Of a stretch of DNA of 64,000 nt, positions 190 through 17,701 are shown one piece after another. Every line of letters starts with the position of its first letter. Positions within the stretch are counted from its first letter, which is position 1. Source of the DNA: Anaeromyxobacter dehalogenans 2CP-1 (GTDB lineage Bacteria > Myxococcota > Myxococcia > Myxococcales > Anaeromyxobacteraceae). Under the pieces are notes generated by a model. The model saw only the letters and a list, made by a program, of their open reading frames with translations. It ran no database searches and was not told the origin of the DNA. A program made the translations under genes and the position numbers. The stretch spans positions 2,802,001-2,866,000 of the forward strand of contig NC_011891.1 in NCBI RefSeq assembly GCF_000022145.1. Direction: 5' to 3'.

Positions 190-1938
190 TCAGCACGCCG
201 CCGCCGCCGCGCGGTCCGTCGCGTCGCCGCCGCGCCGGTGCGGTCCCGTCCAGACCTGGCCGCCCAGCAGCCACACCAGCCCCCCCGGCGCGCGCCCCTG
301 GACGGAGAGGTGGCCGCCGTGGATGCAGCGGAGGTGGTGGAACGCGCAGAGGCCCACCAGGTTCTCGGAAGCGTCGCTACCGCCGTGCGAGCGGAAGTCG
401 ATGTGGTGCGCGTGCGCCGCGTGCCGGCTGCAGCCCGGCACCTGGCACCAGCCCGAGTCGCGCTCGCGGATGCGCCGCGAGCGCGTTCGTGAGCCCCCCG
501 GCGCGTCCCCCCAGGTCGCGAGGAAGTGGAAGGCGATGACCGCCAGGCACGTTCCGGTGGAGAGCGCGGGCCCATGGCGCTCCCGGACCGAGGCGATCGC
601 CGCCGCGAGCAGCACCGCCACCCCGCGCGGCAGGGACGCGACCAGCTGCCCCCGCGCACGCAGCTGCCCCTCGCGCTCGCCCTCCACCTCGCGGCGGAGC
701 GCGACGCAGGTCGCCTCGAGCGCCCGCGGAATCCATCGAGCGATGTCGGACTCCTGCAGCCGCGCCAAGACCCGCAGCTTCTCGTAGGAGACGCCCCGCT
801 GCCGCGCCTCCTCCAACGCCGGCGCCGCCGCCAGCCGGGCCTCCAGCGCCACGCGCTGCTCCACCGCCCGCGCCGGCAGCCCCAGCCGCTCCTCCACGTA
901 CTCCCGAAAGCTCCCATATCCGGACAGCCGGTGCATCCCGCTCCGCTTCACCGCGTACCCACACAACCCGATGATCCGCTCCCATCCCGCGCGGCACTCC
1001 GCCAGCGCGCGCAGGCGCGCGTCGAGCTCCTGCGCGGAGAGCGACTCGTGGAACGAGAGCTCCGGTGCCGGCAGCGCCGGGACGTCCGGAAGCTCCGCCC
1101 ACCCGTCTGGCCCCAGGCTCGCCGTGGCGCCCCGCCGCGTCGACTCGGGGCCTCGCGCCCGGAACCCCGGACCCAGCGGACGGGAGTCGTCCCCGTCCGG
1201 ATCGCCCGGGTGCTCCGCCAGGTACTCCTGGGCCAGCACCTCGAGCTGCTCGATGCGGCTCGACCCCGGCTCCAGCTCCCGGGCGAGCGCGAGCGCCTCG
1301 TCCAGCACCCGCCGCTCGTCCGGCGGCAGCTGCGTGCGCAGCTCGACCCACGCCTCGTCCTCGTCGTCACCGACGGCACCGCCCGCCCCGTCGCCCAGCG
1401 CTCGGGCCGCGCGGACCGCCGCCTCCAGTGCCCGGACCGTCTCCCTGCCCGCGCGCTCGACCCACGCCGCCTCCGCCTCGCCCACCGCGACCGGCAGGAT
1501 CGTCTCCGCCGCCCGGAGCCGGACCCGCCCCGCGCGCAGCGCCTCGCGGAGCAGCGGCCGCTCGCGCAGCCCCGCGCCCAGCCGCGCCAGGTTCTCGGCC
1601 GCGCGCTTCCCCAGGTCGAGCGCCTCGCGGGCGTAGTCGTCGAGGTGACACCCCAGCGCCGCCAGCCGGTCGCCCCGCCTCAGCGCCGTGAGCCCTTCCG
1701 CCAACTCGACGTCGAGGCACCCCCGCATCCGCGCCGCCCAGACGAGGAGATGCTCGCCCACGTCGCCCTCGAGCTCGCCTCCGCGGAACCACGCCTCGAT
1801 CTCGGCAGGCGTGAACGGCGGCAGCTCGACCCGCGGCGGCGCGTGGCGCGCCAAGGCCGCGTCCAGCGCGGCGGCGTCCAATCCGGCGGTGGCGTGCGCG
1901 GCGTTCATTGCGCACATCATTGCGCAATGGTCTGACAC
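190..1938 (-). CDS. HNH endonuclease domain protein
   Basis: A 582-residue protein with a C-terminal HNH nuclease domain at about residues 488-540. The visible order is a Cys pair (CQVPGCSRH), then AHHIDFRSHGG, then the ENLVGLCAFHH element, followed by about 40 residues rich in Gly and Arg. The long N-terminal part is Ala/Arg/Glu-rich and helical, as in the DUF222/13E12-like HNH proteins that are often multicopy in actinobacteria and myxobacteria. It probably cuts DNA, but the target and role are unknown; mobile-element or defence links are possible. The GTG at 1938 gives the longest frame, and ATG codons a few residues later are alternatives. The start region holds two copies of CATTGCGCA (1909-1930). 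It stands alone, with no obvious operon partner. Confidence 0.8.
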   Translation of the reverse strand: MSDHCAMMCAMNAAHATAGLDAAALDAALARHAPPRVELPPFTPAEIEAWFRGGELEGDVGEHLLVWAARMRGCLDVELAEGLTALRRGDRLAALGCHLDDYAREALDLGKRAAENLARLGAGLRERPLLREALRAGRVRLRAAETILPVAVGEAEAAWVERAGRETVRALEAAVRAARALGDGAGGAVGDDEDEAWVELRTQLPPDERRVLDEALALARELEPGSSRIEQLEVLAQEYLAEHPGDPDGDDSRPLGPGFRARGPESTRRGATASLGPDGWAELPDVPALPAPELSFHESLSAQELDARLRALAECRAGWERIIGLCGYAVKRSGMHRLSGYGSFREYVEERLGLPARAVEQRVALEARLAAAPALEEARQRGVSYEKLRVLARLQESDIARWIPRALEATCVALRREVEGEREGQLRARGQLVASLPRGVAVLLAAAIASVRERHGPALSTGTCLAVIAFHFLATWGDAPGGSRTRSRRIRERDSGWCQVPGCSRHAAHAHHIDFRSHGGSDASENLVGLCAFHHLRCIHGGHLSVQGRAPGGLVWLLGGQVWTGPHRRGGDATDRAAAAAC

Positions 1939-2056: not shown

Positions 2057-2350
2057 CTACTCCAGGACGCCGAACACCACCGCCTCGAACTTCCTGCCGC
2101 TCTGCTTAGACTCGAAGTTCCTCAGAACGGCGCCGTTCTTCACGGTGACCTTTGACCTCTTCGGCACCTCGGCCTTCGGCACGGCGACCCAGACCTGACC
2201 CTTCTCCGTCTCCAACCGCAGCAGGCTGTACGGCGCCGCATCGACCCGCTCTACGACGGTACCCGTGATGGTGGCGTTCGGACCCGTGGGCGGCGGGGCG
2301 GTGGGGGAGGTGCAGGACACGAGCACCACGAGCACGAATGCTTTGCGCAT
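2057..2350 (-). CDS. Small lipoprotein with NrfJ-like OB-fold domain
   Basis: A 97-residue protein. It starts with a short signal peptide and a lipobox (LVVLVSC), so it should be lipidated at Cys13 and anchored in the periplasm. The mature part has GTVVERVDAAPYSLLRLE, then VWVAVPKAEV, then a closing NFESKQSGRKFEAVVFG. That pattern matches the small NrfJ-type or tOB-fold proteins found near multihaem cytochrome genes. No reaction can be assigned. A second, frameshifted and truncated copy of the same gene lies at 6531-6718 in front of an orphan Rhs module, so the family is duplicated within this accessory region. Domain match is by eye only. Confidence 0.65.
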   Translation of the reverse strand: MRKAFVLVVLVSCTSPTAPPPTGPNATITGTVVERVDAAPYSLLRLETEKGQVWVAVPKAEVPKRSKVTVKNGAVLRNFESKQSGRKFEAVVFGVLE

Positions 2351-2735
2351 TACTCCTCCGACAACTTTCGGGAGCGCCGCCCGGGCGCTGATTCAGCGAT
2401 CCGATGCACCACAACAACAGAAGAACTACAGAAGGACGGTGCTCTTCCCGCACGGTCCGTGAATCTCACCGCGACTCGGTACGCGCCTGCGTCTAATTGT
2501 GTGTCGGCGGTCAAGATGGCTGGGACCTGGCCTACGCGACCCATCCCGAGATCTCCCTGCTCCGGCGAGGCCCCGAACGCCAGCAACGTCGTGGTCGAGC
2601 CCGGGTGCCCAGTAGCAAGCTACCGGACCACCCCTGCTGCCTCACGCCGTTGTTGGCGTTCTTGGCCTTGCTGGAGGGGGAGGATTTCGGGACCCCAGCC
2701 TGCACCAGCGGACCAGGGTGCTACGCTCGGACACC
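2351..2735. other. Gene-free stretch between lipoprotein and next gene
   Basis: About 385 bases between the start of the lipoprotein gene (minus) and the start of the plus-strand gene at 2736. The region is divergent, so it should contain promoters for both. I see no convincing -35/-10 or -24/-12 element, RNA gene or repeat. Short frames here have no domain and poor codon use. Confidence 0.4.
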
Positions 2736-3563
2736 ATGAACACGCCGGCCGAAGCCCTCGCGCTGTCGCACATCGGCTACGCCGAGGCCCAGGTCGTGGC
2801 CCGGTTCATCGACGAGAAGCTCCGGGCAGCCGTCGATGAGCGCACGCCGACGGGGCTCCACGGCATCGCCTTCCAGGGCCAGCTACTCCGGACCATCGCG
2901 TGGCTGAGGAGCCTCGCCAAGCTGGACGACCCCGGCAACGACTTCCAGGCCATCACCTCGGCCGCGCGCTCGGTCTTCGAGAGCGCGGTGGACGTGACGC
3001 TGATGCACTTCGACGGGTCTGCGAACGGGCCAGAGAAGATGGACGGCTGGGAGGACTCCGCCAAGTTGAAGCACTCCCAGAACGCGACCGAGTACCTCGC
3101 CGCCTCGGGGCGGGCACCCACCGACGCGGAGCGGACGGTGATGGCCTACGCCAGCCGCGAGAAGGACCGCGTCGAGAAGCTCCGGCTCCGCTGGTGGCCG
3201 AACGAGAACGGGCGGCACCCTCGGAACCGCTGGACAGGTCGCGACCTCGGGACCGACGCGCGGGAGGCCGACAAGCTCCTCCCGGAGGGCTTCGAGGAGT
3301 TCTACCGGCTGCGCTACCCGCAACTCTGCTGGAACGTCCACGGGTCGGGCTTGGCCGCGGTCGCGAACGTTGGCCCCGACGCCTTCGCCTACATCGGCGG
3401 GCAAGCCTACGAAGAGGCTGCCCAGTTCGCGACGGTCGTCGCGAAGGTCGTGGCGCTGCACCTCGGCTGCTGGAACGAGGAGGACTTCAAGCGCCTCGCC
3501 CAGCACGTCGAGGAGACGAGGGTCGCGGTCTACCTTGCGCACCAGGCGAAGCGCGGGGCGTGA
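2736..3563 (+). CDS. Hypothetical protein, DUF5677-like
   Basis: A 275-residue soluble protein with no signal peptide. The helical N-terminal half (RTIAWLRSLAKLDDPGNDFQ, then SVFESAVDVTLMHFDGS) and the later element RYPQLCWNVHGSG recall the DUF5677 family, proteins of unknown function often found in accessory regions and near defence genes. I chose the ATG at 2736; an upstream in-frame start at 2718 is possible but lacks a better ribosome site. It is alone on the plus strand between minus-strand genes, so it is probably a single transcription unit. The function is unknown and the family assignment is tentative. Confidence 0.6.
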   Translation: MNTPAEALALSHIGYAEAQVVARFIDEKLRAAVDERTPTGLHGIAFQGQLLRTIAWLRSLAKLDDPGNDFQAITSAARSVFESAVDVTLMHFDGSANGPEKMDGWEDSAKLKHSQNATEYLAASGRAPTDAERTVMAYASREKDRVEKLRLRWWPNENGRHPRNRWTGRDLGTDAREADKLLPEGFEEFYRLRYPQLCWNVHGSGLAAVANVGPDAFAYIGGQAYEEAAQFATVVAKVVALHLGCWNEEDFKRLAQHVEETRVAVYLAHQAKRGA

Positions 3564-3646: not shown

Positions 3647-4339
3647 TCATCGCCGCTTCCGCGTCCTCCGCGTCGGCCTCCGAGCGCCCCCGGGGCCCGC
3701 GCTGCGCCGGGACGCGAGTTTCAGCGCCGCCGCGAAGAGGGCGGGCACCAAACCGGCACGGAATGAGAGCGCCTCGATTTCGAGCCCCTTCCCGTTCAGG
3801 AGGGCTGCGGCGACGCGAGGCCCGAGGAGGACTTCGGGGTCCGCCAGCGCCTGAACCACCTGGAGGTGCGCCTTGTCGAACGCCGACAGGTCGCGTGCCC
3901 GCAACCTCTCGGGCTCTACGTCGGGGTCGCCCATGGCGTCGAGGACTGCGTCCGAGACACCGTAGAACCGAGCGCGTTCTGGGCCAAGGTGGGCCCGCAA
4001 CGAGAGGAACGTGTGCAGGTCCATCGGGTCGGCGTCCCCGACGAACGTGACGGGCCCCGAGCCGCCAGCTGCGAGCGCCGCGATGGCCGTCGCGTGCGCG
4101 CGGGTCAGCATTCCACTTGCCACCACCACGACCAGGCCCGCCGGCCAGCTAGACCTGCTCCAGCGCGCGACGGGCGCCTCCTTCGTGACGACCAGCACAC
4201 GTCGCGGCGCGCCCGTCCCGACGAAGACCCGCAGAGGCGCGTCGCCTTCAAGGTCTTGCCCTTCCCATTCATCGGGATGCTGTTCAGCGAGCTTGCGGAC
4301 CTTTGCCCAAGACTCTTGTAGCGCGCGCGCCCCGGTCAC
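3647..4339 (-). CDS. Unknown 230-aa protein behind orphan Rhs tip; candidate immunity gene
   Basis: GTG start at 4339 with a strong ribosome site (GGAGGAG, 4 bases upstream), 25 bases after the stop of the orphan Rhs tip. The middle of the protein reads GLVVVVASGMLTRAHA, then GPVTFVGDADPMDLHTFLSL, a hydrophobic strand ending in a D-x-D. This weakly recalls a Toprim or Topo VI-A/Spo11-like nucleotide fold. The C-terminal end is a basic Arg-rich tail. Its place directly behind a variable Rhs tip is where a cognate immunity gene is expected, but the sequence itself does not show that role. The identity is unresolved; both Toprim and immunity are inferences. Confidence 0.55.
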   Translation of the reverse strand: MTGARALQESWAKVRKLAEQHPDEWEGQDLEGDAPLRVFVGTGAPRRVLVVTKEAPVARWSRSSWPAGLVVVVASGMLTRAHATAIAALAAGGSGPVTFVGDADPMDLHTFLSLRAHLGPERARFYGVSDAVLDAMGDPDVEPERLRARDLSAFDKAHLQVVQALADPEVLLGPRVAAALLNGKGLEIEALSFRAGLVPALFAAALKLASRRSAGPGGARRPTRRTRKRR

Positions 4340-4364: not shown

Positions 4365-4659
4365 TTATTGAAGCCACGGAAGGTGCACCCCGCGGCAATC
4401 CGCCTTGTTGCCCTGCTGCCCCACGTCCCGGTCGCCATGCTTCGGGTCCGTTGGGTTCCAGGTCGGGTCCGCTATACCCAGGCAAGTGCACTTGCACGTC
4501 CCGGCCTTGGGCGAGCAGTCGTTCGGCGCGGGCTGGGGGTTCTTCCACGGCCACCATGGCGGCGGCCATGGAATTACTGGGGGGCGGCGCGGTTCGGGAG
4601 TGCCACAGCACTCGGGACACCCGGGGAACTTCTTCATGCAATTACTGGGAGTGTCGAGC
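4365..4659 (-). pseudogene. Orphan Rhs variable C-terminal tip (3' part, cut off by IS256)
   Basis: This is the 3' part of the orphan Rhs C-terminal module. The frame continues directly from the core at 6040 once the IS256 element and one copy of the 8-bp duplication are removed (GRQT then LDTPSNCMKK). It codes for about 98 residues rich in Pro, Trp and Cys (CPECC, PPPWWPW, CKCTC) and ends at TAA 4365. It does not resemble the tip of the main Rhs gene. No nuclease or other toxin motif is recognisable, so whether it is a toxin is open. It is now separated from its start by the insertion. Confidence 0.6.
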
Positions 4660-4667
4660 GTCTGACG

Positions 4668-6031
4668 GGTCAAGTCCCGATCAATGTGTAAAACGGACTC
4701 ACGGTGAAGCTCCTCGTTTGCTTCACGCGGCCTTGGCGACGACAGCCTCCTTCGACTTCAGCAGGGACATGTCCAGGTAGCGGCGGTCGGTCCAGATCGC
4801 CGTGACCTGGAGCGCGACCGCGGTGACGAGCCGGAGGGCGCTCGCGCGGTCCGGGAAGGCGCCCACCGCCCGCGTCCGGCGCTTGATCTCGCCGTGGAGC
4901 CGCTCGAGCCCGTTCGTCGAGCGGATGCGGTGCCAGTGCTCCTTCGGGAACGCGTAGAACTTGGTGGCCGCCTCGAAGCCGGCCTCGAGGCACGCCATCG
5001 ATTCCGGAAGCTGGCGCCCGAGGCCGGCGGCGAGCTGGGCCATCCGCTTGCGGGCCTCGGCCTTGGTCGGCGCCACGAACACCTGCCACACCTCGCGGGC
5101 AAGCCGCGGCCTGAGCTTCTGGGGGGCCTTGCCGACGACGTTGCGCTGCAGGTGGACGACGCACCGCTGCTGCGGCGCCTCGGGCAGGTGGAGCCGGACC
5201 GCCTTCGCGATGCCCGCGTGGGCGTCGGCGATGACGAGCTGGACGCCCGAGAGGCCGCGCTCGACGAGCTGCGCGAGGAGCTCGCTCCACGACTCCTCCG
5301 ACTCCTCGGCGCCGATCGTCACGGCGAGGAGCTGGCGGTGGCCATTGAGGCCGATGCCGTAGGCCACCAGCGCCGAGACGTTCTCAACCGTCCGCGCCCA
5401 GCGGGCGTCGAGGAACGTGGCATCGAGGAAGAGGTACGGGATCGGGCCGGCGATGGGTGCGTTCCGCAGCTCCTCGACCTTGGTGCCCAGGGGTCTTCGC
5501 CACCCGGCTCACCGTCGACTTGCTCACGTGCTCGCCCATGAGCGCCTCGGTGATCTGGCCGATGTCGCGGGTCGAGGCCCCGTGGACGTAGGCGCTGACC
5601 ATCGCGTCGTCGATCTCCGCCGACCGGCGTTTGTACCGTCCGATGACCGCGCCGCCGGCAGAGCCGCCCTCCCGAGCGCGCGGGACCTCGAGGTCGACGG
5701 CGCCCATCGTGGTGATGAGGCGGCGCAGGTACGTGCCGTTCCTGCTGTCGACGCGCTGGGCCTGCCGCTCCCACTTCTTGGCCCCGACCATCTCTCGGAT
5801 CTCGTCCTCCAGCACGACCTCCAAGGCGACGCGGATCGCGCCCTGGAAGAGCGCGCGAAGATCCGTCCGGAAGTTCTCTTGCGTGGGCAGCTCAAGCTCG
5901 GCAACCTCGTTCACGGGAAAGCTCCTCGACCTCGCTTGGCGGCGAGGCCTGTTGGACTTGGTTTCGAGGAGCTTCCCTTCTCTCTTCACCCTCCGCGAAC
6001 TTCCGAATCACACAATTCTAGGGACACGAAC
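4668..6031 (-). mobile_element. IS256-family insertion sequence in orphan Rhs tip
   Basis: A 1,364-bp element. The left end starts GGTCAAGTCCCGATCA. The right end read inward starts GTTCGTGTCCCTAGAA, and the two align without gaps with about two thirds identity over 30 bp. The 8-bp direct repeat GTCTGACG flanks it at 4660-4667 and 6032-6039, which is the target duplication expected for IS256. It carries one transposase gene, read on the minus strand and frameshifted. Removing the element plus one repeat rejoins the orphan Rhs frame exactly. Confidence 0.85.
4723..5989 (-). pseudogene. IS256-family transposase, frameshifted
   Basis: Mutator-type DDE transposase in two frames. The 5' part (5989 to about 5490) has the N-terminal region, including the MVGAKKWERQ and SRNGTYLRR elements. 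The 3' part has the catalytic core: FLDATFLDARW, then LVIADAHAG, then STNGLERLHGEIKRR, which supply the D, D and E. The break is at a run of four G on the plus strand (5490-5493). One fewer base would join VAKT to LGTKVEELR. Either the copy is dead, or the run is a sequencing error. Total length after repair is about 420 residues, normal for the family. IS256 elements are not known for programmed shifts, so I read this as inactivation. Confidence 0.85.
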
Positions 6032-6039
6032 GTCTGACG

Positions 6040-6530
6040 CCCGGTCGGGTCCACGTTGGTCAGCGGGTTTCCGTCCCCGTAGTTGTACCAGTCGGGCGCG
6101 TACCAGCCGACCCCATCGAACCCACCCTCCAGCGCCAACGGGTCCAACTCCATGTACCTGCCGACCGACGGCAGATACCACCTGTTCCACTTGTAGTACG
6201 GCCCCTGGAGCCCGAGGCTCCCGAGCAGCCGCTCGTCGTACTGCCCCGGGAGCCGCAGGTTCGTCACGACCGTTTGTCCGGTGGCGGGATCGGGCGTCAT
6301 CGTCTCGCTGACTTCCCCATAGGGCTTCGTGGCAGCGGACCAGACCGTGACTCCCTCTGGGCTCGATAGCGCCCGAGGCATGCCGATGTGGTCCAGGTGG
6401 AAGTAGTACGGTCTGGGAGCCGCCTGCGATGGCGTGTACTCGAGCTGCGCGAGGGGCCGTCCATCCAGCCAAACGTACTCCCGCAGCGGCGTCCACGGCC
6501 GCGACGGATCGTTCGTGAACCCCAGCTCAC
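6040..6530 (-). pseudogene. Orphan Rhs core fragment (5' part of orphan C-terminal module)
   Basis: Codes for the last part of an Rhs core: TNDPSRPW, then HLDHIGMPRALSSPEG, the GQYDERLLGSLGLQGPYY element, and GRYMELDPLALEGGFDGVG, ending NPLTNVDPTG before the IS256 site. It is almost identical in protein and DNA to the main Rhs gene over about 390 bp, then the two diverge. The copy has no Rhs start of its own. At 6530-6535 it is joined in frame to a broken lipoprotein gene. This is the arrangement of an orphan rhs-CT cassette, which can recombine through the shared core to swap the tip of the main gene. The function now is doubtful because of the insertion and the upstream frameshift. Confidence 0.75.
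6141..6529. repeat. Duplicated Rhs core segment (copy 1; copy 2 at about 7632-8021)
   Basis: About 390 bp near-identical between the orphan module and the main Rhs gene, in the same orientation and about 1.5 kb apart. Differences are scattered single bases. Homology ends sharply at CAGCTCA on the 5' side of both copies and fades beyond the GRYxELDP codons on the 3' side. Such a direct repeat allows deletion or tip exchange by homologous recombination. Confidence 0.8.
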
Positions 6531-6718: not shown

Positions 6719-7112
6719 TGCCGCCCTCCCACTTTGCGCGGGCAGCCGCGACTACGGTCTGAGCATCTTCATCGCCGCTTGACCGAGCCAAAGACGCTGC
6801 TCGCGCATGGCACGCCTGAGCCTCGCGGACTCGACCGAGTCGAAAGTAGACGTCAGCCAGCGCGACAAGCGTGAATGGCTGCGGACCTTCGGTGGCAATC
6901 GCCTCATCGTAATAGCTCGCCGCCCTCAAGAGGTCCCCGTCCTGGTCGCAAAGAAGCCCCGCCGTTTTGGCCAATAGAGCGGTGTTGGCTGGCCGAGAAG
7001 CGCTTGGCCGGCTACGAGCCAACGCTTCCTCCAGGCAAGCGATGGCTTCGCCAAGTTTGCCTGCCCGAGCGAGTTCGGAAGCAGCTCGAAGCGGGTTGTC
7101 CTCATCCTTCAT
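6711..7112 (-). CDS. TPR-repeat protein behind main Rhs gene; candidate immunity gene
   Basis: A 133-residue soluble protein built of TPR-type helical repeats. Visible units are ASELARAGKLGEAIACLEEAL, then a DLLRAASYYDEAI unit, then ALADVYFRLGRVREAQACHA. The ATG at 7112 has an ideal ribosome site (GGAGG, six bases upstream); a longer frame from 7139 lacks one. It starts 44 bases after the stop of the main Rhs gene on the same strand. A small cytosolic gene directly behind an Rhs variable tip is usually the cognate immunity gene, but TPR proteins have many partner-binding roles. The immunity role is inference from position only. Confidence 0.65.
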   Translation of the reverse strand: MKDEDNPLRAASELARAGKLGEAIACLEEALARSRPSASRPANTALLAKTAGLLCDQDGDLLRAASYYDEAIATEGPQPFTLVALADVYFRLGRVREAQACHARAASLARSSGDEDAQTVVAAARAKWEGGSG

Positions 7113-7156
7113 GGACCGCCTCCAGAGACTCATGAACACACCCCAAGGCCCTCGCG

Positions 7157-9079
7157 CTATGGGTTCTGCTTCCAGGGAAGGCCATTAATACACCGGATAT
7201 AGTTCTTCCATGCGCGCTCCATGCACGCGTCGTACTGGGCGTCGTCGCCAGACGTGTACCAATCAGCGCACCTAACCGTAGCCTCTTCGTACTGGACGCG
7301 GCATGGATCCTTGGGCGGACAACCACCGCCACCGCCCCCCGCCCCTCCCCCGGCTCCCGGTCCAGGGTCCGAACTATCTCCTTGACCCGGCCCAGGTTCC
7401 GCGCACCCTCGCGGGCTGTTTTCGCAAGGATCTCCTCCGGTCGGCGCTGGCCACAAGATCCCGATGCCTATGCCGATACCGGTGCCAATTGCAGCACCGA
7501 TCCCTGTCCACCACGGCGGCGGAGGTGCCCAGTATAAGCCTCTCCGGTCGGTGTAGCGCACCGCGTTCTGGCCCGCATACCCGTACCAGTCCACGCCGTA
7601 GCCCGAGTTGAAGAACCCGCGCGAGGCAATCGGGTCCAACTCCAGATACCTTCCCACCCCCGGCAGATACCACCTGTTCCAGTTGTAGTACGGCCCCTGG
7701 AGCCCCAGGCTGCCGAGCAGCCGCTCGTCGTACTGCCCCGGCAGCCGCAGGTTCGTCACGACCGTTCGCCCGGTGGCGGGATCGGGCGTCATCGTCTCGC
7801 TGACTTCCCCATAGGGCTTCGTGGCCGCGGACCAGACCGTGACTCCCTCTGGGCTCGATAGCGCCCGAGGCATGCCGATGTGGTCCAGGTGGAAGTAGTA
7901 CGGTCTGGGAGCCGCCTGCGATGGCGTGTACTCGAGCTGCGCGAGGGGCCGTCCATCCAGCCAAACGTACTCCCGCAGCGGCATCCACGGCCGCGACGGA
8001 TCGTTCGTGAACACCAGCTCAGACAGCAGCTCGCCTGCCGGGCCGAACACGAAGTGCGTCCACTGCCCCGTGACAGCGACCCAGCGCGCGATGCGCCGCC
8101 CTTGAGCGTCGTACTTGAATCGAGCCGTCGGCTCGGTCACGTCCGAGTCGCGCGCACACGAGATTCCATCGCCTCCCGAGTTGACGCCGGCGCCGACGAG
8201 CGTCAGGCGGCCCAGCGGGTCGTGCCGAAGGCACATGACCGCGTGCGCCTGACCGTCCGAGTACGCGGCGATCGAGCTGACGTTGGTTTGCCAATCGTAG
8301 TCATAGGCATGGGTGAGCGCGAAGCCAGACGCACCTGGAACGCCGGAGTCGCGGATGCGATCCGTGACAACCGGCGACGACGTGTACTGACTCGAGGAGG
8401 CGTACCGATGCGTCAGATCGGAACCCGGGCCGAATCCCGGGCTGAAGCCGATCAGCCGGTCGCGAAAGTCATAGGCAAATCGCGAGGAGCTGCCGCCGTC
8501 CTGGACCATGCTGACGTCGCCGCTCGCCGTCATCATGTAGTCGAGCGCAAGCGGGCCGCTACGGATCGACGCGGGCTCGTACCGGAGGTTGACGGTCTGG
8601 CTGAAGCTCTGGCCATTCCCGAACACGAAGGCCTTCAGCGGACCGCCGGGCCACCTCGAGATCGCATCCGCGAACACGATCGTGCCGTCGGAGGTGCTCA
8701 ACTTCCGAATCTCGCGCGACGCGGGATCGCGGTCTGCCTTCACGACGAGTCCTGACGGGTACGTCACTGTCTCGACGTACCCATCCACATCGTAGCCGTA
8801 CTCCGTCACGATTGGCGCGCCGCCGTCTACCTGCGTAGCGACCACGCGGCTCTGCCGCCCGGCGGCGTCGTAGTCGATCTCGACGACGCGATCCGGCTCA
8901 ACGGTGGTGGTGAGGAGGCCAGCGTGGCCGCGCTCGTCGTACCGGTGCTCGTACGAGACCTGCTTGTCATCCCAGGTGTCGCTCGCAGCCACGGTCCTCA
9001 CGCGGTCGAGACCATCGTACGAGTACGTCACGACCACGTGATCGGTCGTGCGCTGGAGCAGGTTGCCGCGGGCATCGTA
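7157..9079 (-). pseudogene. Main Rhs/YD-repeat gene, 3' part with core and variable tip
   Basis: The final 640 codons of the main Rhs gene, separated from the 5' part by the IS66 element. It has YD repeats from AYDARGNLLQRTTD onward (YSYDGLDRV, KYDAQGRRIA). Then comes the Rhs core (DHIGMPRALSSPEG, GQYDERLLGSLGLQGPYYNW, GRYLELDPIA), then a tip of about 130 residues. The tip has a glycine-zipper segment (GIGAAIGTGIGIGIGIL), a Gly/Pro linker and a Cys-containing end (CPPKDPCRV, DACMERAWKNYIRC). No known toxin motif is seen. The frame stays open upstream to a GTG at 9154 inside the IS, so a truncated product is conceivable, but it would lack signal peptide and N-terminal shell. Confidence 0.8.
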
Positions 9080-9168
9080 GGCGAAGCGTATCCGCCCGAC
9101 GACGGGCGTCTTGCGACGGTAGACTGCTGAACGCTGTATCCGCCGTACGGTCACCGCGAGAGAACGGC

Positions 9169-9633
9169 ATGCCCCAGGTCGATTCGCTGCTCAGGTCGGA
9201 CATCCTCGCTTCTGTTGGAGGGTTTCGAGCACCCGCATCGGAGCCGATCTGGGCGGACAGTGGTGAGCCCACGACAGGAGGTGCTCAGCTTTTCTTCTAC
9301 GTGACGCGAGCCAAGCACCACTTCGCCTCGCTGGGAGTCTTCTGGGTCCACGCGCTGTTCAACTTCCTTGAGGATCGGTTGGAAACCGAGGCCCTCGTCC
9401 AAGTGGCGACTCGCAGCTTATGTCACGAGGTGACGCCCGCCGAGGTTGTCGACGCGCTTCAAAGTCGGATGGGCCGTCCGCTGGAAAATACCGAACGCGC
9501 CACGATGCTCATGACGGGCGGAAGAGCTCTGCGCGTGTTTTCGATGCTCGTCTCCGAAGTGTGGTGGGCCGGCCTGGTCGAGGCCGAGGGTGCGTGCGTA
9601 GCCGTGTTCCTCGATTCGACGTCGAAGCAGTAG
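9169..9633 (+). CDS. Passenger protein of unknown function inside IS66 element
   Basis: A 154-residue protein lying inside the IS66 terminal repeats, convergent with tnpC (70 bases between stops). Features that can be seen are a hydrophobic stretch ASLGVFWVHALFNFLEDRLE, then SLCHEVTPAEVVDALQSRMG, and an aromatic end (MLVSEVWWAGLVEAEGAC). No signal peptide and no known motif. The ribosome site is weak (GAGAG). Normal IS66 elements carry only tnpA, tnpB and tnpC, so this looks like a passenger gene. I do not recognise it; it could also be a chance open frame, although its residue composition looks protein-like. Confidence 0.5.
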   Translation: MPQVDSLLRSDILASVGGFRAPASEPIWADSGEPTTGGAQLFFYVTRAKHHFASLGVFWVHALFNFLEDRLETEALVQVATRSLCHEVTPAEVVDALQSRMGRPLENTERATMLMTGGRALRVFSMLVSEVWWAGLVEAEGACVAVFLDSTSKQ

Positions 9634-9702
9634 CCGGCAACTCTGCGCGTCGCAGGCATCGCCGCCCTTCTCCCGCTGCGTTCGAGTTCGCCGCCGACCC
9701 GC

Positions 9703-11166
9703 TCAGGCCGACGGCTCGGGTCTGGGTGGCGTCCAGTTGTGCGGCAGGAGCTCGTCGATCCGCGACGCCGGATGCGTCTGCACGCGGAGGAGGACGTCGG
9801 CGAGGTAGTCGACCGGGTTGATGCCGTTCGCCTCGCACGTCGCGATGAGCGAGTACAGGCCGGCCAGGTTCTCGCCCGCCGCGTCCGTTCCAACAAACAG
9901 GAAGTTCTTCCGTCCGAGGGCGCAGACGCGCAGCGCGCCCTCGCTCGCGTTGTTGTCGATGGGTAGATGGGGATCGGTGAGGAAGAGCGTCAGCTCGTTC
10001 CACTGGCCAAGCGCGTAACCGATCGCGACGCCGATCGGCGAGCGTGGCGGATGCCGCCCCTGCACGGCATCGAGCCACGCCCTGATCTCGTCGATGACGA
10101 CGCGGCTGCGCGTCTGCCGCATCGCGAGGTGCTCCGGAGTGCCGAGCAGATCCGCGTCGAGCGCAGCGCGCTCGATCTTGTACAGCTCGAGGATGAGCTC
10201 CATCGCGTGCTTGGCGGCCGCTGTCGCGGTCGACTGGGCGTCGAAGAACTTCCTGCGAGCGTGGGCCCAGCAGCCGGCGCGTTCGCGTCCGCCCGGCAGC
10301 GTCACCTTGTTGTAGCCCTCGTACCCGTCGACGAGCAGCTTGCCGATCGTGCCTTCAAGCACGCGGACCGGAGTCTCGCCCGATCGGCTGCGGGAGAAGA
10401 CGTACGCGATCAGCTCACGCTCCGCTTCGTCGCGCGCGATGAAGCTCCAGATCCAGGCGGTGCGCGTCTTCCCCTTCGCCTGCACGCGATGCGTCGTCTC
10501 GTCCGCGAGCACGATCTCCTTCTCGGCGACGAGATGCAGGAGCCGCTCGTAGAGGGGGTCCACCAGCTCCGCGGTTCGGTGGAAGAGATCGCCGAGGGTC
10601 GAGTCGTTCACCTCGACTCCGGTGCGCCGGTACGCCTTCGCCTGGCGGTAGAGCGGGAGTGAGTCGGCGCACTTCGAGACTGCCACCTGCGCCATGAACG
10701 TCGGGCCGAAGCGCGTCTTGTCGAACACCTTCGCCGGCCCGTCGGCGGTGATGATGGTCTCGCCGCACCGGCAGCGGACCTTCTTCTGCACGTGGAGCTG
10801 CCGCTCGATGCGCGCGGGGACGAGCTCGTACAACTCCGTCACCTTGCCTTCGCCGAGCGGCGTGAACTCGTGGCCTCCGCACTTCGGGCACGACTTCTGG
10901 TCTTCGCGGACCTCGTGAACGATCTTGCGAGCGACGAGCTGCCGCTTCTTCTCGGCGTTCTCACGCCGCTTCTGCTGGGCGGCGATCCGCTCGGCCTCGG
11001 CGTGCGCCGGATCGCGGATCGCCTCGGAGATCGGCGGCATCTTCTCGGAGCGCGCGCCGAACTGGTGGCGCTGCAGCTTCTCGAGCGTCGCTTCGACCTG
11101 CGCGAGCCGGGCCTCGAGCGCTTCGGCTCGCTCGCGCCACTCGCAACGATGATCGTCGCCGCCCAT
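9703..11166 (-). CDS. tnpC: IS66-family transposase TnpC
   Basis: A 487-residue DDE transposase. The N-terminus has a leucine-rich coil (ALEARLAQVEATLEKLQRHQ) followed by FGARSEKMP, both typical of IS66. A zinc-binding region follows (CPKCGGHEF and CRCGETI). The catalytic residues are visible in VLADETTHRV, LVDGYEGYNKV and NNASEGALRV. The C-terminal part has the GRKNFLFVGTDAAGENLAGL element and the YLADVL tail seen in the family. Full length with no visible damage. It follows tnpB by 13 bases. Confidence 0.95.
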   Translation of the reverse strand: MGGDDHRCEWRERAEALEARLAQVEATLEKLQRHQFGARSEKMPPISEAIRDPAHAEAERIAAQQKRRENAEKKRQLVARKIVHEVREDQKSCPKCGGHEFTPLGEGKVTELYELVPARIERQLHVQKKVRCRCGETIITADGPAKVFDKTRFGPTFMAQVAVSKCADSLPLYRQAKAYRRTGVEVNDSTLGDLFHRTAELVDPLYERLLHLVAEKEIVLADETTHRVQAKGKTRTAWIWSFIARDEAERELIAYVFSRSRSGETPVRVLEGTIGKLLVDGYEGYNKVTLPGGRERAGCWAHARRKFFDAQSTATAAAKHAMELILELYKIERAALDADLLGTPEHLAMRQTRSRVVIDEIRAWLDAVQGRHPPRSPIGVAIGYALGQWNELTLFLTDPHLPIDNNASEGALRVCALGRKNFLFVGTDAAGENLAGLYSLIATCEANGINPVDYLADVLLRVQTHPASRIDELLPHNWTPPRPEPSA

Positions 11167-11179
11167 CGGCGACTGTAGA

Positions 11180-11578
11180 TCACGCCGGAGCGGGCTTGTC
11201 CATGGGACGAGCGGCCTGAGGATCCGACTGGGACGGCTGCCAGTGCTCAGGCCGGCGGACGCGTCCGAAGTCGATGCCGTCGAGGAGCATCGCGAGCTGT
11301 GTCGCGTCGATCTCGACGGCCATCGTCGATGGATCCATGTGGGGCAGCTTGAACTGCCCGCGCTCGAGCCGCTTGTACACCAAGACGAACCCGCCCTTGT
11401 CCCACGTCAGGATCTTCACGCGGTCCCACCGCCGCGAGACGAAGACGAACAGGTGGCCCGAGTACGCGTCCTTCGCGAGCTCGTTCTGCACGATCGCGTG
11501 AAGGCCATCGATCGACTTGCGCATGTCGATCGGCGTCGAGCCGATGTAGATGCGCACCGAGCGCGGGATGGTGATCAC
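11180..11578 (-). CDS. tnpB: IS66 accessory protein TnpB
   Basis: A 132-residue protein of the IS66 Orf2 family. The signature is clear: PIDMRKSIDGL near the start, then GHLFVFVSRRWDRVKILTWD and GFVLVYKRLERGQF. TnpB is required together with TnpA and TnpC for IS66 transposition; its biochemical role is poorly known. The start overlaps the tnpA stop by four bases (ATGA), which indicates translational coupling, as is usual in this family. Confidence 0.95.
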   Translation of the reverse strand: MITIPRSVRIYIGSTPIDMRKSIDGLHAIVQNELAKDAYSGHLFVFVSRRWDRVKILTWDKGGFVLVYKRLERGQFKLPHMDPSTMAVEIDATQLAMLLDGIDFGRVRRPEHWQPSQSDPQAARPMDKPAPA

Positions 11579-12009
11579 GACGCGAGCGCAGCGGCGAGGG
11601 CGCGGACGTACGCGAGGTCGGTGCCGGCGGTGAAGCGGAGGCGGGCACCGGACGGGAAGAGCAGCTCCAGGGCGGCGTCCGCGGCGACCGCTGCGGCCGT
11701 GTCTTGCCGCGCCTTAGGCGCGGACGCTACCACGCGCACCGGCACGAGACGCGAGCCCTCTGGAGCGGCGCGACGCTCAGGTACTTGATCTGAGCGCTCC
11801 GGCGCCTGCGAGACGAGCGGTCGCGACTCTTTGCGCAGGCGGTAGATCCAGTAACGCAAGTTGCTGAGCGGGATTCCTCGCTCCGTCGCGAACTCGCGCT
11901 GCGGGAGATCGCACGACTCGAAGTCGGCGACGAGCTTGGTCCAGCGGCTTCTGTCCTGGTCGGCCATGAGGTCCTCCGCGAGAGAAGCGCGGAGGATCTC
12001 GTCGCTCAT
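11575..12009 (-). CDS. tnpA: IS66 accessory protein TnpA
   Basis: A 144-residue protein with the helix-turn-helix of IS66 TnpA: WTKLVADFESCDLPQREFAT followed by RGIPLSNLRYWIYRLRKE. The C-terminal half is variable and ends in a short hydrophobic element (ALELLFPSGARLRF) seen in many TnpA proteins. The ATG at 12009 lies only 35 bases inside the right end of the element, so the promoter must overlap the terminal repeat or lie in the Rhs gene. Confidence 0.9.
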   Translation of the reverse strand: MSDEILRASLAEDLMADQDRSRWTKLVADFESCDLPQREFATERGIPLSNLRYWIYRLRKESRPLVSQAPERSDQVPERRAAPEGSRLVPVRVVASAPKARQDTAAAVAADAALELLFPSGARLRFTAGTDLAYVRALAAALAS

Positions 12010-12044
12010 GGGCGCGCGCTACACGTCCAGCGCCGGGCGGTTAC

Positions 12045-15000
12045 GGCGAAGCGGAGCACGCCTCCCCGGTGCGTCTCGGTCCACAACTCGATGAGGCGTC
12101 CGAAGTCGTCATAGCCGTACGTCGTCCGCTGCCCCTTCCCATCCGTCACAGTCGAAAGGGAGTCCTGGTAGTCCTGGAACTGGTACGCAGCCACGAGCGC
12201 TTGGACTGGCACTCCGGACGCATCCATCCCCGACTGCTCGATGGATGCGATACGGCGTAGCGGATCCGGGTGGAAGACCGTCTTCCGACCATCCTCGTCC
12301 GACGCGCTCTCGAGGAACCCCGACGCACCGTACGCCCATGTGCGCCTTGCCTCGGGGCGCGCGGGATTCGCTTGCATGACGACGCGATGGCGGACGTCGT
12401 ACTCACGGTCCTGCTGCCACGTGACGAGGCCGTTCGCGTCGCGACGCTCGACGTGGATCGGGTTGCCGGCCGGATCGTATCGGGTGCTCTCGCTCCACGC
12501 GACCACAGGCATTGCGCCGGGTTCATCCGGATCGCGGTCGAGATACTCCGTCAACTCCACGCGTCCGCGCAGATCGTAGCCCGTCCGAATCGTCGATCCG
12601 CTCGAGTCGATGACCAAACGGGGCAGCGAGCCGTCGTAGAACCGGGTCTCGACCTGCCGGCCTGCGTGCAACGCAAACCGCGTGCGTCCGCGGACGTCCT
12701 TGATCAGGACAGTGGTGGTCCCATTCGGCGCGACAACGGTGTAAGGACCGAACGCGTCGTAGTCGAATGCGGTGATCAACGGCGGCGAGCCAGGGCTCGC
12801 GTAGCGCTTCACCTCATGGAGGCGCCCGCGACGCACGAGCGTCGCGTCGTCCGGCCAGTACGTTCGTTCCTCCAAGGGCACCACGTCGGATATGCTCGGC
12901 CGGTCGAGGTTGACGGGACCGATGCTTCCGATGAGCCGACCACGCGGATCATACGAATTGAAGGTGGCGTGGCGCTCCAGTACTGGACTCCCGTCAGCCG
13001 CGCGCGTGTACCCTGTCGAGAGGCGCCGGCATGCGACGGACCCCGCGGGCAACGGCGTTCCCGTGCATTGGTAGCCCACGGGGTCGAGGGGCGACGTTGC
13101 CTGGGTGTAATCCACCGTCTCCGTCGCGTAGGCGTTTGCTTGCAGGCTGCTCCGCCGGCGCGTCGTGATGACCCGCTCGAGCGGGAGCGTCACACTCGTG
13201 GCGATCTCCTTGACGCTCCCGTAGTCGTACCACTCCTCCGTCGACGCCTTCGGGAGCGGACCATTTGGCGGGCATGCCGCCGCCCCGTCCGCGCTCGCGA
13301 ACCTTGCCGTGTATGCCAACCGACCATCCTCGTCGTATCGCCGGTACGTGACATGGCCTTCCGGATCCGTCTCGCACACGAGCCGACGATCCACCCACTG
13401 GCGCATGGTCGCCGGGCCGCAGGAACAGTTGTCCGACACCGATGTCACGAGACCATCCGGGTCCAGTGTTCGCTGGCCGGTGACGGACGTGGCCCCGAAT
13501 CGCTCAGTGACCTGTGTCATGCCTCCCGATGCGTAGCCGACGCTCACATCCGAGGTCGCGTCGATGACGCCAACCGCTTCACCGTTCGCGGCGTAGGCGA
13601 ACTCCGCAACGGCGACCCCAGCCTCGTTCACCACGGCATGCAACAGGCCGTCAGCTCCATAGACGTACGTCCGAATCGGATTGCCATCGGCGTCCTGCAC
13701 ATGGCCGAGGTCCGAATCTTGATAGCCGTAGGTCGCGTACGTTTGGCCATCGTATCGGAGCTCCCGAACGAGCCCTTCGCTACAGGCGTTCGCCGACCGA
13801 AGCTCCAGAGAGTGCCCAAGGTCGTCGGACAGCCCGATGAGGATGCCGCCCGGCCTGTCGTAGGACAAATAGGTCACGTTGCCATACGGGTCGACCTTCT
13901 CGACGAGCCGGGCTGCGCCTCCCTCCCGCGGGTCGACGCATGTCCTGTCCAGCGATCCACAGGAATCGCAGACGGTCGCGAACCTCAGCTCCGTTCCGTC
14001 GACCATGAAGACGGTCCAAGTCGAGTTTGGACGCCGCACCAGCACGTTCGGATTGTCGGAACGCGTCACCGCAGTGTCACCCCTGCGAAAGACCTCCCAT
14101 ACCTCCGTCCCGTCGACGGACGTCACGTTCCCGGATCGGCGGAAGACGAGTGCGGACTGAATCCCCCGGACAACGGTGCAATACTCACCCAAGCACGAGA
14201 GGGTCGCCTCCCAGTCATGGTGCCATCCCCTGCCAAACACTCCGACCGGACCGCCCCACAGGGACGCGTCCGCGCTCGAGTAGGTCCGCGTGATGCCGAG
14301 GTTGACCACTGCGCTCACGGAGAAGTCCGTGAACGGTTCCGTCACGGCGCTTCTGGTCGCCAGCAGGATCGGGTCAGCCCCGGCAACCCCTCCGAGGCAA
14401 TTGGGAGGCTTCGGGGACGGTCCTGCGCCTGGCGGCGGAGGAGGAAGCGGGGGCCCCGGCGGCGGTTCGGGCGCACAGCCCTCATCTGCCAGTCCATTGC
14501 AGTTCTCGTCCGTGCCGTTACCGCAGACCTCCAGCGCGTCCGCCTTGAAGGGATCGCACGTGGCGACCGTCGCAGGGTTGCACGATCGCGACGAGCAGGC
14601 CGCAGTGCACGTGCATGGTGGCTCCCCGATCGTGCATCCTTCGTCGATGCAACCATCGAAGTCGTCGTCTATGCCATTCCCTGAGTCATCGGCGGCGCAC
14701 AGGTCCTGCGGCGACCCGATCTCCGTGCAGGAGGCGGCGCTCGAGTCGCCGTCGCACACGCATGCGCTCGGGTCTGGATAGAAGGCACAGTACCCTGAGC
14801 AACTCGTCTCGACCCAGCAATCCGAACTCTCGCCATAATGGCGATCGCAAATGACCGGCCCGGCAGGCTGCTGAGTCCCACAATAGTACCGCTGACTCAG
14901 GATGCATGTATGGGTGTCCGTCATCAATGAATGCCGACACAGGGCCGCGTCCTGCCCGAACCACCACTTCTTGTAGGTCTTGCTGTTGCACGCGGGGGCC

Positions 15001-15062
15001 TGCGCTGACGCAGAACCTGCCACAACCAGCAGCGCACACGTGACGAGAAGGCGCTTACCCAT
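12045..15062 (-). pseudogene. Main Rhs/YD-repeat gene, 5' part with signal peptide
   Basis: The first 1,006 codons of the main Rhs gene. The ATG at 15062 has GGAG four bases upstream and starts a Sec signal peptide (MGKRLLVTCALLVVAGSASA). Next is a Cys-rich segment with two MopE-like metal-binding motifs (GNGIDDDFDGCIDEGC and GNGTDENCNGLADEGC), then a Pro-rich linker. A DUF6531-like entry to the Rhs shell follows (RTYSSADASLWG, GRGWHHDWE), then many YD repeats up to GYDDFGRLIE. The frame runs 39 more bases into the IS66 end and stops at 12006. There is no PAAR or VgrG part, so export by Sec rather than a type VI system is likely. The IS3 element 27 bp upstream has probably removed the native promoter. 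Confidence 0.8.
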
Positions 15063-15419: not shown

Positions 15420-16255
15420 GGCCCGTCGCGCTCCGCCTCGGTGTCGAAGAGATCCGGGCGGAGTTCGCGATGAAGAAGCGGCGGGCCTGCCGCGTCGTCG
15501 GACTCGCGCCGGCGACCTACTATTACCGCGCGCGTCGCCCGGAGCGGGTCGACCTCCGGGAGAAGCTGAAGGCGTTCGCCGCCGAGCGGCCGCGCTGGGG
15601 CTACCGGCGCCTCCACGTCCTGCTGAAGCGCGAGGGTCACGCGGTGAACCACAAGCTCGTCTTCCGCCTCTACCGCGCGGAAGGCCTGGCAGTCAGGCGA
15701 AAGAAGCGCAAACGCATCGCTGCGTCGGTCCGGGTTCTCCCGCCACCGCCGACGCGGCCGCGCCAGCAGTGGACGATGGACTTCACCCAGGACTCGCTCG
15801 CGAGCGGGCGCCAGTTCAGGACGCTCAACGTGATCGACACCTTCACTCGCGAGTGCGTCGTCATCGAGGTCGACCACTCGCTGCCGGGCGCCCGGGTCGT
15901 CCGCGTCCTCGAGCGCCTCGTCGAGCTCTGCGGGAAGCCCGAGGTGATCCGGGTCGACAACGGCACCGAGTTCACGAGCCACGTCGTCGACGCGTGGGCG
16001 TACGAGAACGGCATCAAACTCGACTTCATCCGCCCGGGCAAGCCGACCGAGAACGGGCACATCGAGAGTTTCAACGGGAAGTTCAGGGACGAGTGCCTGA
16101 ACGAGAACTGGTTCATCAGCCTCGACGACGCGCGCAGGAAGATCGAGGCGTACCGAGTCGACTACAACCAGGTCCGGCCGCACAGCTCGCTGGACAATCA
16201 GACGCCAAACGAGTTTGCTCGCAGTCTCGCCGGGCTCACGAAGCTAGCCGTCTAA
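15413..16255 (+). CDS. IS3-family transposase OrfB (integrase core)
   Basis: A 280-residue rve-type integrase core. It has the HTH_21 region (ERPRWGYRRLHVLLKREG), then the DDE residues in QQWTMDFTQDSL, VIRVDNGTEFTS and NGHIESFNGKFRDECLNE, and the closing IEAYRVDYNQVRPHSSL. This region is full length and undamaged. It is normally made as the C-terminal part of OrfAB after the -1 shift at 15407-15413; the ATG at 15413 might also start OrfB alone. Confidence 0.95.
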   Translation: MVGPVALRLGVEEIRAEFAMKKRRACRVVGLAPATYYYRARRPERVDLREKLKAFAAERPRWGYRRLHVLLKREGHAVNHKLVFRLYRAEGLAVRRKKRKRIAASVRVLPPPPTRPRQQWTMDFTQDSLASGRQFRTLNVIDTFTRECVVIEVDHSLPGARVVRVLERLVELCGKPEVIRVDNGTEFTSHVVDAWAYENGIKLDFIRPGKPTENGHIESFNGKFRDECLNENWFISLDDARRKIEAYRVDYNQVRPHSSLDNQTPNEFARSLAGLTKLAV

Positions 16256-17461
16256 AGTCGGGGGGCAGGTCAACGATCCCAACGGAACGGTCGTCGGCGT
16301 CGCCGTGAGCGCGGTGACGACGAGGTCCGGCTTCGTGATGGTGATGACCGGGCCAGTGATCGCATTGTTCGTCTCGTCCGACTCGTCGATGTAGGTACTG
16401 TCGACGATCGCCCCCACGTAATAGGTTCCGGTGATGCTGGTGGACGGGGAGAGCGTCGTCGTCGCCGAGTTCGACTGCCCCGGTGTCATCGCGGCCCCAA
16501 TGCTGCGGCTGCCAATCGAGATGTCGGAGGCCGTGATGACAGGATCCGTCGACAGGTAGTACCTGACGTAGAAGCTCGAGAGTGTCTTGCCGCCCGTCAC
16601 GGTCACGGAGTCCGTCACCGTCAACGACGATCCCAATGGAACGGTCGTCGGCGTCGCCGTGAGCGCGGTGACGACGAGGTCCGGCTTCGTGATGGTGATG
16701 ACCGGCCCCGCGAGCGCGTTGTTCGTCTCGTCCGACTCGCTCACCTGCGACGTCGCATCCACGATCGCGCCGACGTAGTACGTCCCGCTGATGCTCGTGG
16801 GCGGAGAGAACGCCAGCGTCGCCGTGCTCGATTCACCATCCTTCAGACCTGCCGACAGGTAGCGGTTTCCGAGCGGCACGTCCGACGTCGTGATCGTCGG
16901 GTCGGACGACAGGTAGTACTTGACGTATATCGTGTTGCTCGCCTTGCCTCCGGCACAGGTCACCGTGTCAGTAACGGTGAGCGGCGAGCCCAGCGGCACC
17001 GTGGCCGGGGTTGCGCTCACCGCCGTGACGACGAGATCCGGCTTCGTGATGGTGATGACCGGCCCCGCGAGCGCGTTGTTCGTCTCGTCCGACTCGCTCA
17101 CCTGCGACGTCGTGTCGACGATCGCGCCGACGTAGTACGTCCCGCTGATGCTCGTCGGCGGCGAGAACGTCAGCGTCGCTGTACTCGATTCGCCGTCCTT
17201 CAGACCAGCCGACAGGTGGCGGTTACCGAGCACTACATCCGAGGTGGTGATCGTCGGATCCGTCGATAGGTAGTAATGCACGTAGAACCCATTGACCGCG
17301 CCGCCCCCCGAGGCCGCGACCGTTGACTCGACCGTCACCGTGGAACCGAGCGGCACCGTGGGCGGCGACGCCGAGATTGCCGCCACCGTGAGGTCGACCG
17401 CAGCGGCCGGATACGCCGACGCGAGCGTCAGCGCCAAGATCACGTTTCGAAGTCGATCCAT
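16244..17461 (-). pseudogene. CARDB-repeat exported protein, 3' end truncated by IS3
   Basis: The ATG at 17461 starts a Sec signal peptide (MDRLRNVILALTLASAYPAAA). It is followed by CARDB-type Ig-like repeats of about 118 residues. Each repeat begins DLVVTAxxATPxTVPLGS and ends VSESDETNNAxxGPVITITKP. Three complete repeats are present. The fourth stops after VPLGS, where the IS3 end begins at 16271, and the frame ends in IS sequence at 16244. CARDB repeats occur in surface or secreted adhesin-like proteins. An original anchor or further repeats have been lost, so the product is probably not functional in its original form. Confidence 0.8.
16317..17400. repeat. Tandem 354-357 bp repeats coding CARDB domains
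   Basis: Near-identical DNA units. The marker ACGACGAGRTCCGGCTTCG starts at 16317, 16671 and 17028, spacing 354 and 357 bp. This allows gain or loss of whole domains by recombination. Confidence 0.8.
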
Positions 17462-17701
17462 GCCCTCACCCGGCGCCCGGGCCGCCCGCGCGACACGCGG
17501 CCGGCCTCGCACTCTACGTGAGGACACGCTACTTGACTGATCGTTCAACGCCAAGCGGCATCGGTTCGCCGCCGGCAACCCCTTGCCGTCGCGGAGAGAT
17601 TTTCCCGTGGGTCAACAGGGACCGTAGCGTGCAGCGACGCGCGCGCGCCTGCGGCCCGCCCGCCCCGCGTGCCGCGCCCGCGCTCGGGCGCTGCCCCGCC
17701 C

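What the first reader, a model, noticed from the sequence alone, without database searches (positions are those of the whole stretch)
4365..6530. Orphan Rhs C-terminal module with an exchanged tip
About 390 bp of Rhs core is nearly identical to the main gene, but the downstream tip is different and is followed by its own small gene. This is the layout of orphan rhs-CT cassettes, known in enterobacteria as a store of alternative tips. The main gene here has a Sec signal and no type VI parts, so a tip-swapping system of another export type may exist.
Basis: partly seen in the sequence, partly recalled or inferred. Interest (0 to 1): 0.6.

Follow-up and report, generated by a model that had tools for sequence, protein, structure and literature searches.

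The report
Orphan Rhs toxin-tip cassette, transposon-broken
A spare toxin tip of an Rhs (YD-repeat) bacterial competition protein sits downstream of the main gene, as in enterobacteria but in a genome without type VI secretion; relatives swap such tips together with the gene behind them, although both the spare tip and the main gene are broken by transposons in this strain.

Summary
The duplicated Rhs core is real: window 6529-6136 (minus strand) matches the main gene at 8021-7627 with 96% identity over 394 bp, and it occurs only twice in the genome. The genes inside 4365-6530 are a frame-shifted IS256-family transposase inserted in the tip (8-9 bp target duplication, imperfect inverted ends). 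The tip's own following gene lies just outside, at 4339-3647. The main rhs is also split, by an IS66 element plus a 154-aa gene. So nothing here looks usable in this strain.

Relatives support the "store of tips" idea. At the orthologous locus of a second genome the upstream junction and core are kept, but tip and following gene differ. Another genus has main and orphan cores 95.6% identical over 771 bp with unrelated tips. Three tip families each recur in two genomes, always with the homologous following gene. One cassette is about 95% identical across species while the cores before it are 50-73%. Most carrier genomes lack VipB and VgrG-type spikes, and the main protein has a Sec-type leader. 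A lipoprotein gene ends many modules. Best reading: a Sec-exported variant of known orphan rhs-CT arrays. Toxicity is untested.

The parts
12006..15062 (-). main rhs, N-terminal part: Sec-type leader, MopE-like motifs, DUF6531, YD repeats
   Evidence: ORF; PF20148, PF05593; aligns to intact relatives; leader judged by eye
9703..12009 (-). IS66-type transposon genes splitting the main rhs
   Evidence: three ORFs in IS66 order; identification by recollection of the family; no target duplication found
9169..9633 (+). 154-aa gene between IS66 and main rhs C part; candidate stranded immunity gene
   Evidence: ORF; similar DNA in L062 (67%); no family
7157..9154 (-). main rhs, C-terminal part with core end (8021-7627) and main tip (7540-7157)
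   Evidence: PF03527, PF05593, TIGR03696
6711..7139 (-). TPR gene following the main tip (candidate immunity gene)
   Evidence: TPR_12 1e-12; 3' end conserved in L062
6535..6668 (-). decayed start of a small lipoprotein gene, fused to the orphan core
   Evidence: aligns to 2336-2207 with indels
6136..6529 (-). orphan Rhs core copy
   Evidence: 96% to 8021-7627
6032..6135 (-). end of core (DPTG motif) and first codons of the orphan tip
   Evidence: translation; diverges from the main gene and from L062
4668..6031 (-). IS256-family element, transposase frame-shifted, inserted in the orphan tip
   Evidence: PF00872; repeat CGTCAGAC(G) and imperfect inverted ends; single copy in genome
4365..4659 (-). 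remainder of the orphan tip, Cys- and Pro-rich, no family
   Evidence: ORF; no Pfam
3647..4339 (-). 230-aa gene following the orphan tip (candidate immunity gene)
   Evidence: ORF; no relatives found
2057..2350 (-). intact small lipoprotein gene of the rhs-linked clade
   Evidence: strong copies only in rhs arrays

Best explanation
This is a displaced (orphan) rhs-CT module of a polymorphic-toxin locus that appears to be exported by Sec rather than by type VI. Full-length Rhs proteins of this family carry a Sec-type leader, YD repeats, a conserved core end and a swappable, usually Cys-rich tip, followed by a small gene (in relatives often a membrane protein) and often by a module-linked lipoprotein gene. 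When a new core-tip-gene set arrives by recombination in the shared core, the old set is pushed downstream and kept as an orphan. Its near-identical core would let later recombination put that tip back on the main gene (inferred from the Salmonella precedent). In this strain the orphan tip was later hit by IS256 and the main gene by IS66, so the locus now looks like a decaying record. Shown here: core duplication, tip divergence, co-movement of tip and following gene, recurrence in other genomes, the transposon insertions. Inferred: toxicity, immunity function, export route, return of tips to the main gene.
For: Core copy 96% over 394 bp with abrupt tip boundary. Orthologous locus L062 keeps junction and core but has another tip and another following gene. 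G120: main and orphan cores 95.6% over 771 bp, unrelated tips, module bounded by 299-bp repeats of the lipoprotein gene end. G103 main and G081 L061 share tip plus following membrane gene at 92-98% with cores at 50-73%. Three tip families recur, each with its homologous following gene. One tip in a relative reaches Ntox16. VipB and spike domain absent from G000, G081, G103, G067, G120. Precedent: 522 bp at 95% and experimental recombination in Salmonella (PMC3967940).
Against: The window's own tips and following genes match no toxin or immunity family, and the 230-aa gene has no relatives, so its pairing with this tip rests on position alone. Both genes are broken here. No toxicity data. The L055 main/orphan cores are only 78% identical, so homogenisation is not universal. 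The outer-membrane step is unknown.
Confidence: 0.8

Rival explanations
1. A plain tandem duplication of the rhs 3' end followed by neutral decay and transposon insertion. The tips differ through drift and chance rearrangement; nothing is stored or swapped.
For: Both copies are broken here; direct repeats bound modules in G120 and G081; the region is rich in insertion sequences.
Against: Core 95-96% identical next to tips with no similarity cannot come from drift; tip plus following gene move as a unit between genomes; intact orphan ORF in G120.
Confidence: 0.1
2. The tips are not antibacterial toxins but variable surface, adhesive or structural domains, or have another role, with chaperone-like partner genes.
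For: Window tips match no toxin family and are short, Pro- and Cys-rich; the TPR gene shows a very weak match to chaperone-type TPR models.
Against: A relative's tip reaches the Ntox16 cut-off; the L057/L060 tips carry a phospholipase A2-like motif and their only, insignificant, PDB matches are phospholipases A2; several following genes are membrane proteins, as expected for immunity to envelope-acting toxins.
Confidence: 0.12

Closest known systems
Orphan rhs-CT/rhsI modules of enterobacteria (Salmonella LT2, Dickeya, Yersinia; PMC3967940, PMC3150448)
   Same: Core fragment nearly identical to the main gene (522 bp at 95% in LT2, 394 bp at 96% here), unrelated tip, own following gene, position downstream of the main pair; orphan tips found on full-length genes elsewhere; transposon-disrupted orphans are reported for cdiA-CT
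   Different: Enterobacterial Rhs are tied to type VI; here the genome lacks VipB and the spike domain and the protein has a Sec-type leader; a lipoprotein gene is linked to modules
WapA of Gram-positive bacteria (PMC3967940)
   Same: YD-repeat protein thought to use the general secretory pathway, variable tip, linked immunity gene
   Different: Gram-positive cell wall carrier; here a Gram-negative host that needs an outer-membrane step
Sec/T2SS-class RHS polymorphic toxins, including Tox-PLA2 and Ntox16 (PMC3482391)
   Same: Signal peptide plus RHS repeats plus exchangeable toxin cassette; both tip types listed for delta-proteobacteria
   Different: No Anaeromyxobacter example is mentioned in the part of the text held; orphan arrays with the lipoprotein gene are not described in the passages read
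SitA toxins of myxobacteria (PMC5562445)
   Same: Same phylum, variable C-terminal toxin with cognate immunity, cassette-like
   Different: Lipoprotein toxins delivered by outer membrane exchange; here the lipoprotein is a separate gene and the carrier is a YD-repeat protein

Membership tests
Orphan rhs-CT/rhsI module | Core fragment highly similar to the main rhs, located downstream | tested here: met
   96% over 394 bp
Orphan rhs-CT/rhsI module | Tip unrelated to the main tip, starting at the DPxG-type boundary | tested here: met
Orphan rhs-CT/rhsI module | Own following gene that co-varies with the tip | tested here: met
   three of three recurrent tip families in relatives, and both change at the orthologous locus; for the window's own pair only position is available
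Orphan rhs-CT/rhsI module | Tip toxic, following gene protective | not testable with these tools
   needs expression
Type VI-delivered Rhs | Type VI sheath and spike genes in the genome | tested here: not met
   VipB and Phage_base_V absent in G000
Sec/T2SS-class RHS polymorphic toxin | N-terminal signal peptide with RHS repeats and C-terminal variable tip | tested here: met
   leader by inspection only; repeats by PF05593; tip variability
IS256-family insertion | Mutator-type transposase, terminal inverted repeats, 8-9 bp target duplication | tested here: met
   PF00872; CGTCAGAC(G) repeat and imperfect inverted ends

The most novel reading that the evidence does not exclude
Anaeromyxobacteraceae use a dedicated, type VI-independent, Sec-exported Rhs system for envelope-acting, disulphide-rich tips, in which a module-linked small lipoprotein is a working component (surface anchor, export helper or general protector) and its duplicated gene also serves as a recombination arm for gaining and losing tip modules.
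Probability: 0.2. Interest if true: 0.6.

Novelty: new variant of a known kind. Interest (0 to 1): 0.42.

Why it matters
It extends tip storage and exchange, known from type VI-linked enterobacterial rhs loci, to Gram-negative bacteria without type VI, with the same genetic signature: near-identical core, abrupt tip boundary, tip and following gene moving as one. It gives a set of natural tip/partner pairs (including PLA2-like and Ntox16 tips) that can be tested, and raises the concrete question of how a Sec-exported YD-repeat protein crosses the outer membrane and what the module-linked lipoprotein does.

Tried and rejected
Relatives of the window's own candidate immunity gene: none in 146 phylum genomes nor in genome contigs, so its pairing with the tip could not be tested directly. 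Structure predictions of that protein (pLDDT 55) and of a relative's PLA2-like tip (pLDDT 43) were too poor to use; a fold search gave nothing significant. HNH gene as a system part: not adopted, because it is a dispersed repeated family, although it sits at the end of three arrays. Lipoprotein gene as a widespread module marker: three hits outside the family (L069-L071) had no rhs match near them. A site-specific junction after the lipoprotein gene (about 62-64 bp past its stop in L057 and L062): no shared motif seen by eye. Target duplication for the IS66 insertion: not found. PADLOC: no hits. Hits of the tip tail and main tip in other genomes were about E 1e-4 or weaker over Cys/Pro-rich sequence and were not followed.

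Full report
WHAT IS THERE. The window lies in a single-contig genome of 5,029,329 bases, at 2,802,001-2,866,000. From the length (my recollection) it is Anaeromyxobacter dehalogenans 2CP-1, and G081 (5,013,479 bases) strain 2CP-C. Relatives named by the tools are Anaeromyxobacter oryzisoli (L065, matching G104) and a Myxococcales MAG (L067, L068, matching G120). All features run on the minus strand unless noted. In order: main rhs N part (15062-12006), IS66-type trio (12009-9703), a 154-aa (+) gene (9169-9633), main rhs C part (9154-7157), a TPR gene (7139-6711), a decayed lipoprotein gene start (6668-6535), an Rhs core copy (6529-6136), the start of a new tip, an IS256-family element (about 6031-4668), the rest of that tip (4659-4365), a 230-aa gene (4339-3647), a 281-aa (+) gene (2718-3563), an intact lipoprotein gene (2350-2057) and an HNH-domain gene (1938-190).

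CHECK OF THE OBSERVATION. The core copy is real, far beyond chance: 96% over 394 bp, present only twice in the genome. But the genes inside 4365-6530 are a Mutator-family transposase (PF00872) whose element sits in the tip between two copies of CGTCAGAC(G), with imperfect inverted ends. It is a single copy in the genome and frame-shifted. The tip's own following gene is outside the interval. The main gene is also split: its N part ends and its C part resumes at neighbouring positions of intact relatives.

COMPARATIVE TEST. The core was found in 7 of 24 genomes of the family and, in an order-wide draw of 117 genomes, in the same seven plus one weak hit outside the family, so this core subtype is essentially family-restricted. 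(1) Orthologous locus: L062 of G081 shares the flanking genes (97.5% and 90%), the TPR-lipoprotein-core junction and most of the core (92-100% in sliding windows apart from one short insertion). It loses similarity at the tip, and the following gene is a different one. Similarity already falls to about 70% before the IS256 site, so the tip change does not depend on the transposon. (2) Recurrence: L057 of G120, another genus, has an open 1647-codon main rhs and an open 587-codon orphan frame, with 771 bp of core at 95.6% and unrelated tips. That module is bounded by 299-bp direct repeats (99%) made of the lipoprotein gene end. L055 of G103 also has main plus orphan. Between genomes cores are mostly 73-89% identical; within a genome they are 95-96% in G000 and G120, but only 78% for L055 main and orphan. 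(3) Co-movement: L055 main and L061 share tip plus following membrane gene at 92-98%, with cores at 50-73% before and no similarity after. Tip families seen twice are L055 main/L061 (97% aa), L055 orphan/L057 main (36%) and L057 orphan/L060 (60%). In each case the directly following gene is homologous (93%, 36%, about 29% aa). With 11 modules and three such pairs on each side, concordance by random re-pairing has a probability of about 1.4e-4 (own arithmetic, 3! x 2^3 x 5!/11!, treating modules as independent, which relatedness weakens). Two of the three pairs link an orphan in one genome with a main gene in another. Following genes of the second family also occur without their tip in L056 and L064, like orphan immunity genes. 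(4) In L062 a further module fragment of about 1.04 kb (8664-9705) sits between the lipoprotein gene and the HNH gene, flanked by a 78-80 bp repeat; the window has a single copy of that repeat there.

WHAT THE PIECES LOOK LIKE. Nine of twelve tips are 5-10% Cys, which fits proteins that fold outside the cytoplasm. One tip (L059) just reaches the Ntox16 cut-off, 25.2 against 25 bits. The L057 orphan and L060 tips share a phospholipase A2-like motif (DSGDxAYMxHDxCYxEC); no Pfam model matches them, and the only PDB matches, all insignificant (E 0.7-4.3), are phospholipases A2 or related chains. Several following genes in relatives look like membrane proteins by a simple hydropathy scan. The window's own two following genes do not, and have no known family apart from TPR repeats.

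EXPORT. The main protein starts with a Sec-type leader (by inspection; no predictor available). VipB is absent from G000, G081, G103, G067, G120 and G149, and present among carriers only in G104. The VgrG-type spike domain shows the same pattern. G149 is 74% complete, so its absence counts little. Type VI is therefore not required, but the route across the outer membrane is unknown.

LIPOPROTEIN. Strong copies of the small lipoprotein (E below 1e-36) occur only in G000, G081, G104 and G120 (three); all lie in rhs arrays, as does one truncated copy. 23 of 24 family genomes have a match, in most only one distant copy. No match was found after the rhs genes read in L055, L056, L059 and L060, so it is common but not universal in modules.

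HOW IT WORKS, BEST READING. A polymorphic toxin with a constant Sec-exported carrier and an exchangeable tip; new tip sets enter by recombination in the core and displace old ones downstream. Salmonella LT2 shows the same signature (522 bp at 95%) and experimental fusion of an orphan tip to the main gene (PMC3967940). Enterobacterial orphan tips are also found on full-length genes elsewhere, and transposon-disrupted orphan cdiA-CT genes are reported (PMC3150448). In this strain both parts are broken, so the locus is best seen as a decaying record.

COMPARISON AND NOVELTY. The layout is known, and so are Sec-class export of RHS toxins and cassette exchange (WapA, PMC3967940; PMC3482391). New here are orphan arrays in Anaeromyxobacteraceae without type VI and the module-linked lipoprotein gene. 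A paper search for Anaeromyxobacter with Rhs found nothing relevant, within an open-access library only. I call it a new variant of a known kind, interest 0.42.

Noticed in passing
190-1938 (-); L062 9836-11560; L061 (turned) 11633-13378: A gene of a dispersed, repeated HNH-domain family (7 hits in this genome) sits at the end of three rhs arrays; its upstream region carries the 78-80 bp repeat that flanks a module fragment in L062.
   Followed up: partly
L062 5863-6357; window 6710-6297: In L062 the displaced lipoprotein leader with its lipobox is in frame with the Rhs core start, as if an orphan had captured an export signal; the core frame breaks soon after. In the window the same fusion is out of frame.
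   Followed up: partly
2718-3563 (+); L061 7340-8385; L060 about 7774-7935: A 281-aa gene of unknown family recurs next to rhs modules in other genomes (94.7% over 1047 bp in L061).
   Followed up: no
9169-9633 (+); L062 4046-4660: A 154-aa gene between IS66 and the main rhs C part has a relative at the orthologous locus; possibly an immunity gene stranded from a lost tip.
   Followed up: no
L056 8223-8714; L064 about 4510-5043: Membrane-anchored following genes of one tip family occur without that tip, like orphan immunity genes.
   Followed up: partly
L062 about 6920-7951: The gene after the orphan tip in the orthologous locus has a weak DUF1835 match (E 0.001, below cut-off) and a marginal similarity to the window's 230-aa gene (25% over 97 aa, E 0.003 in a twelve-sequence comparison).
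   Followed up: no
16244-17578 (-): A gene with near-identical 354-357 bp internal repeats (82-95%), read as a CARDB-like repeat protein by eye, lies upstream of the main rhs.
   Followed up: no
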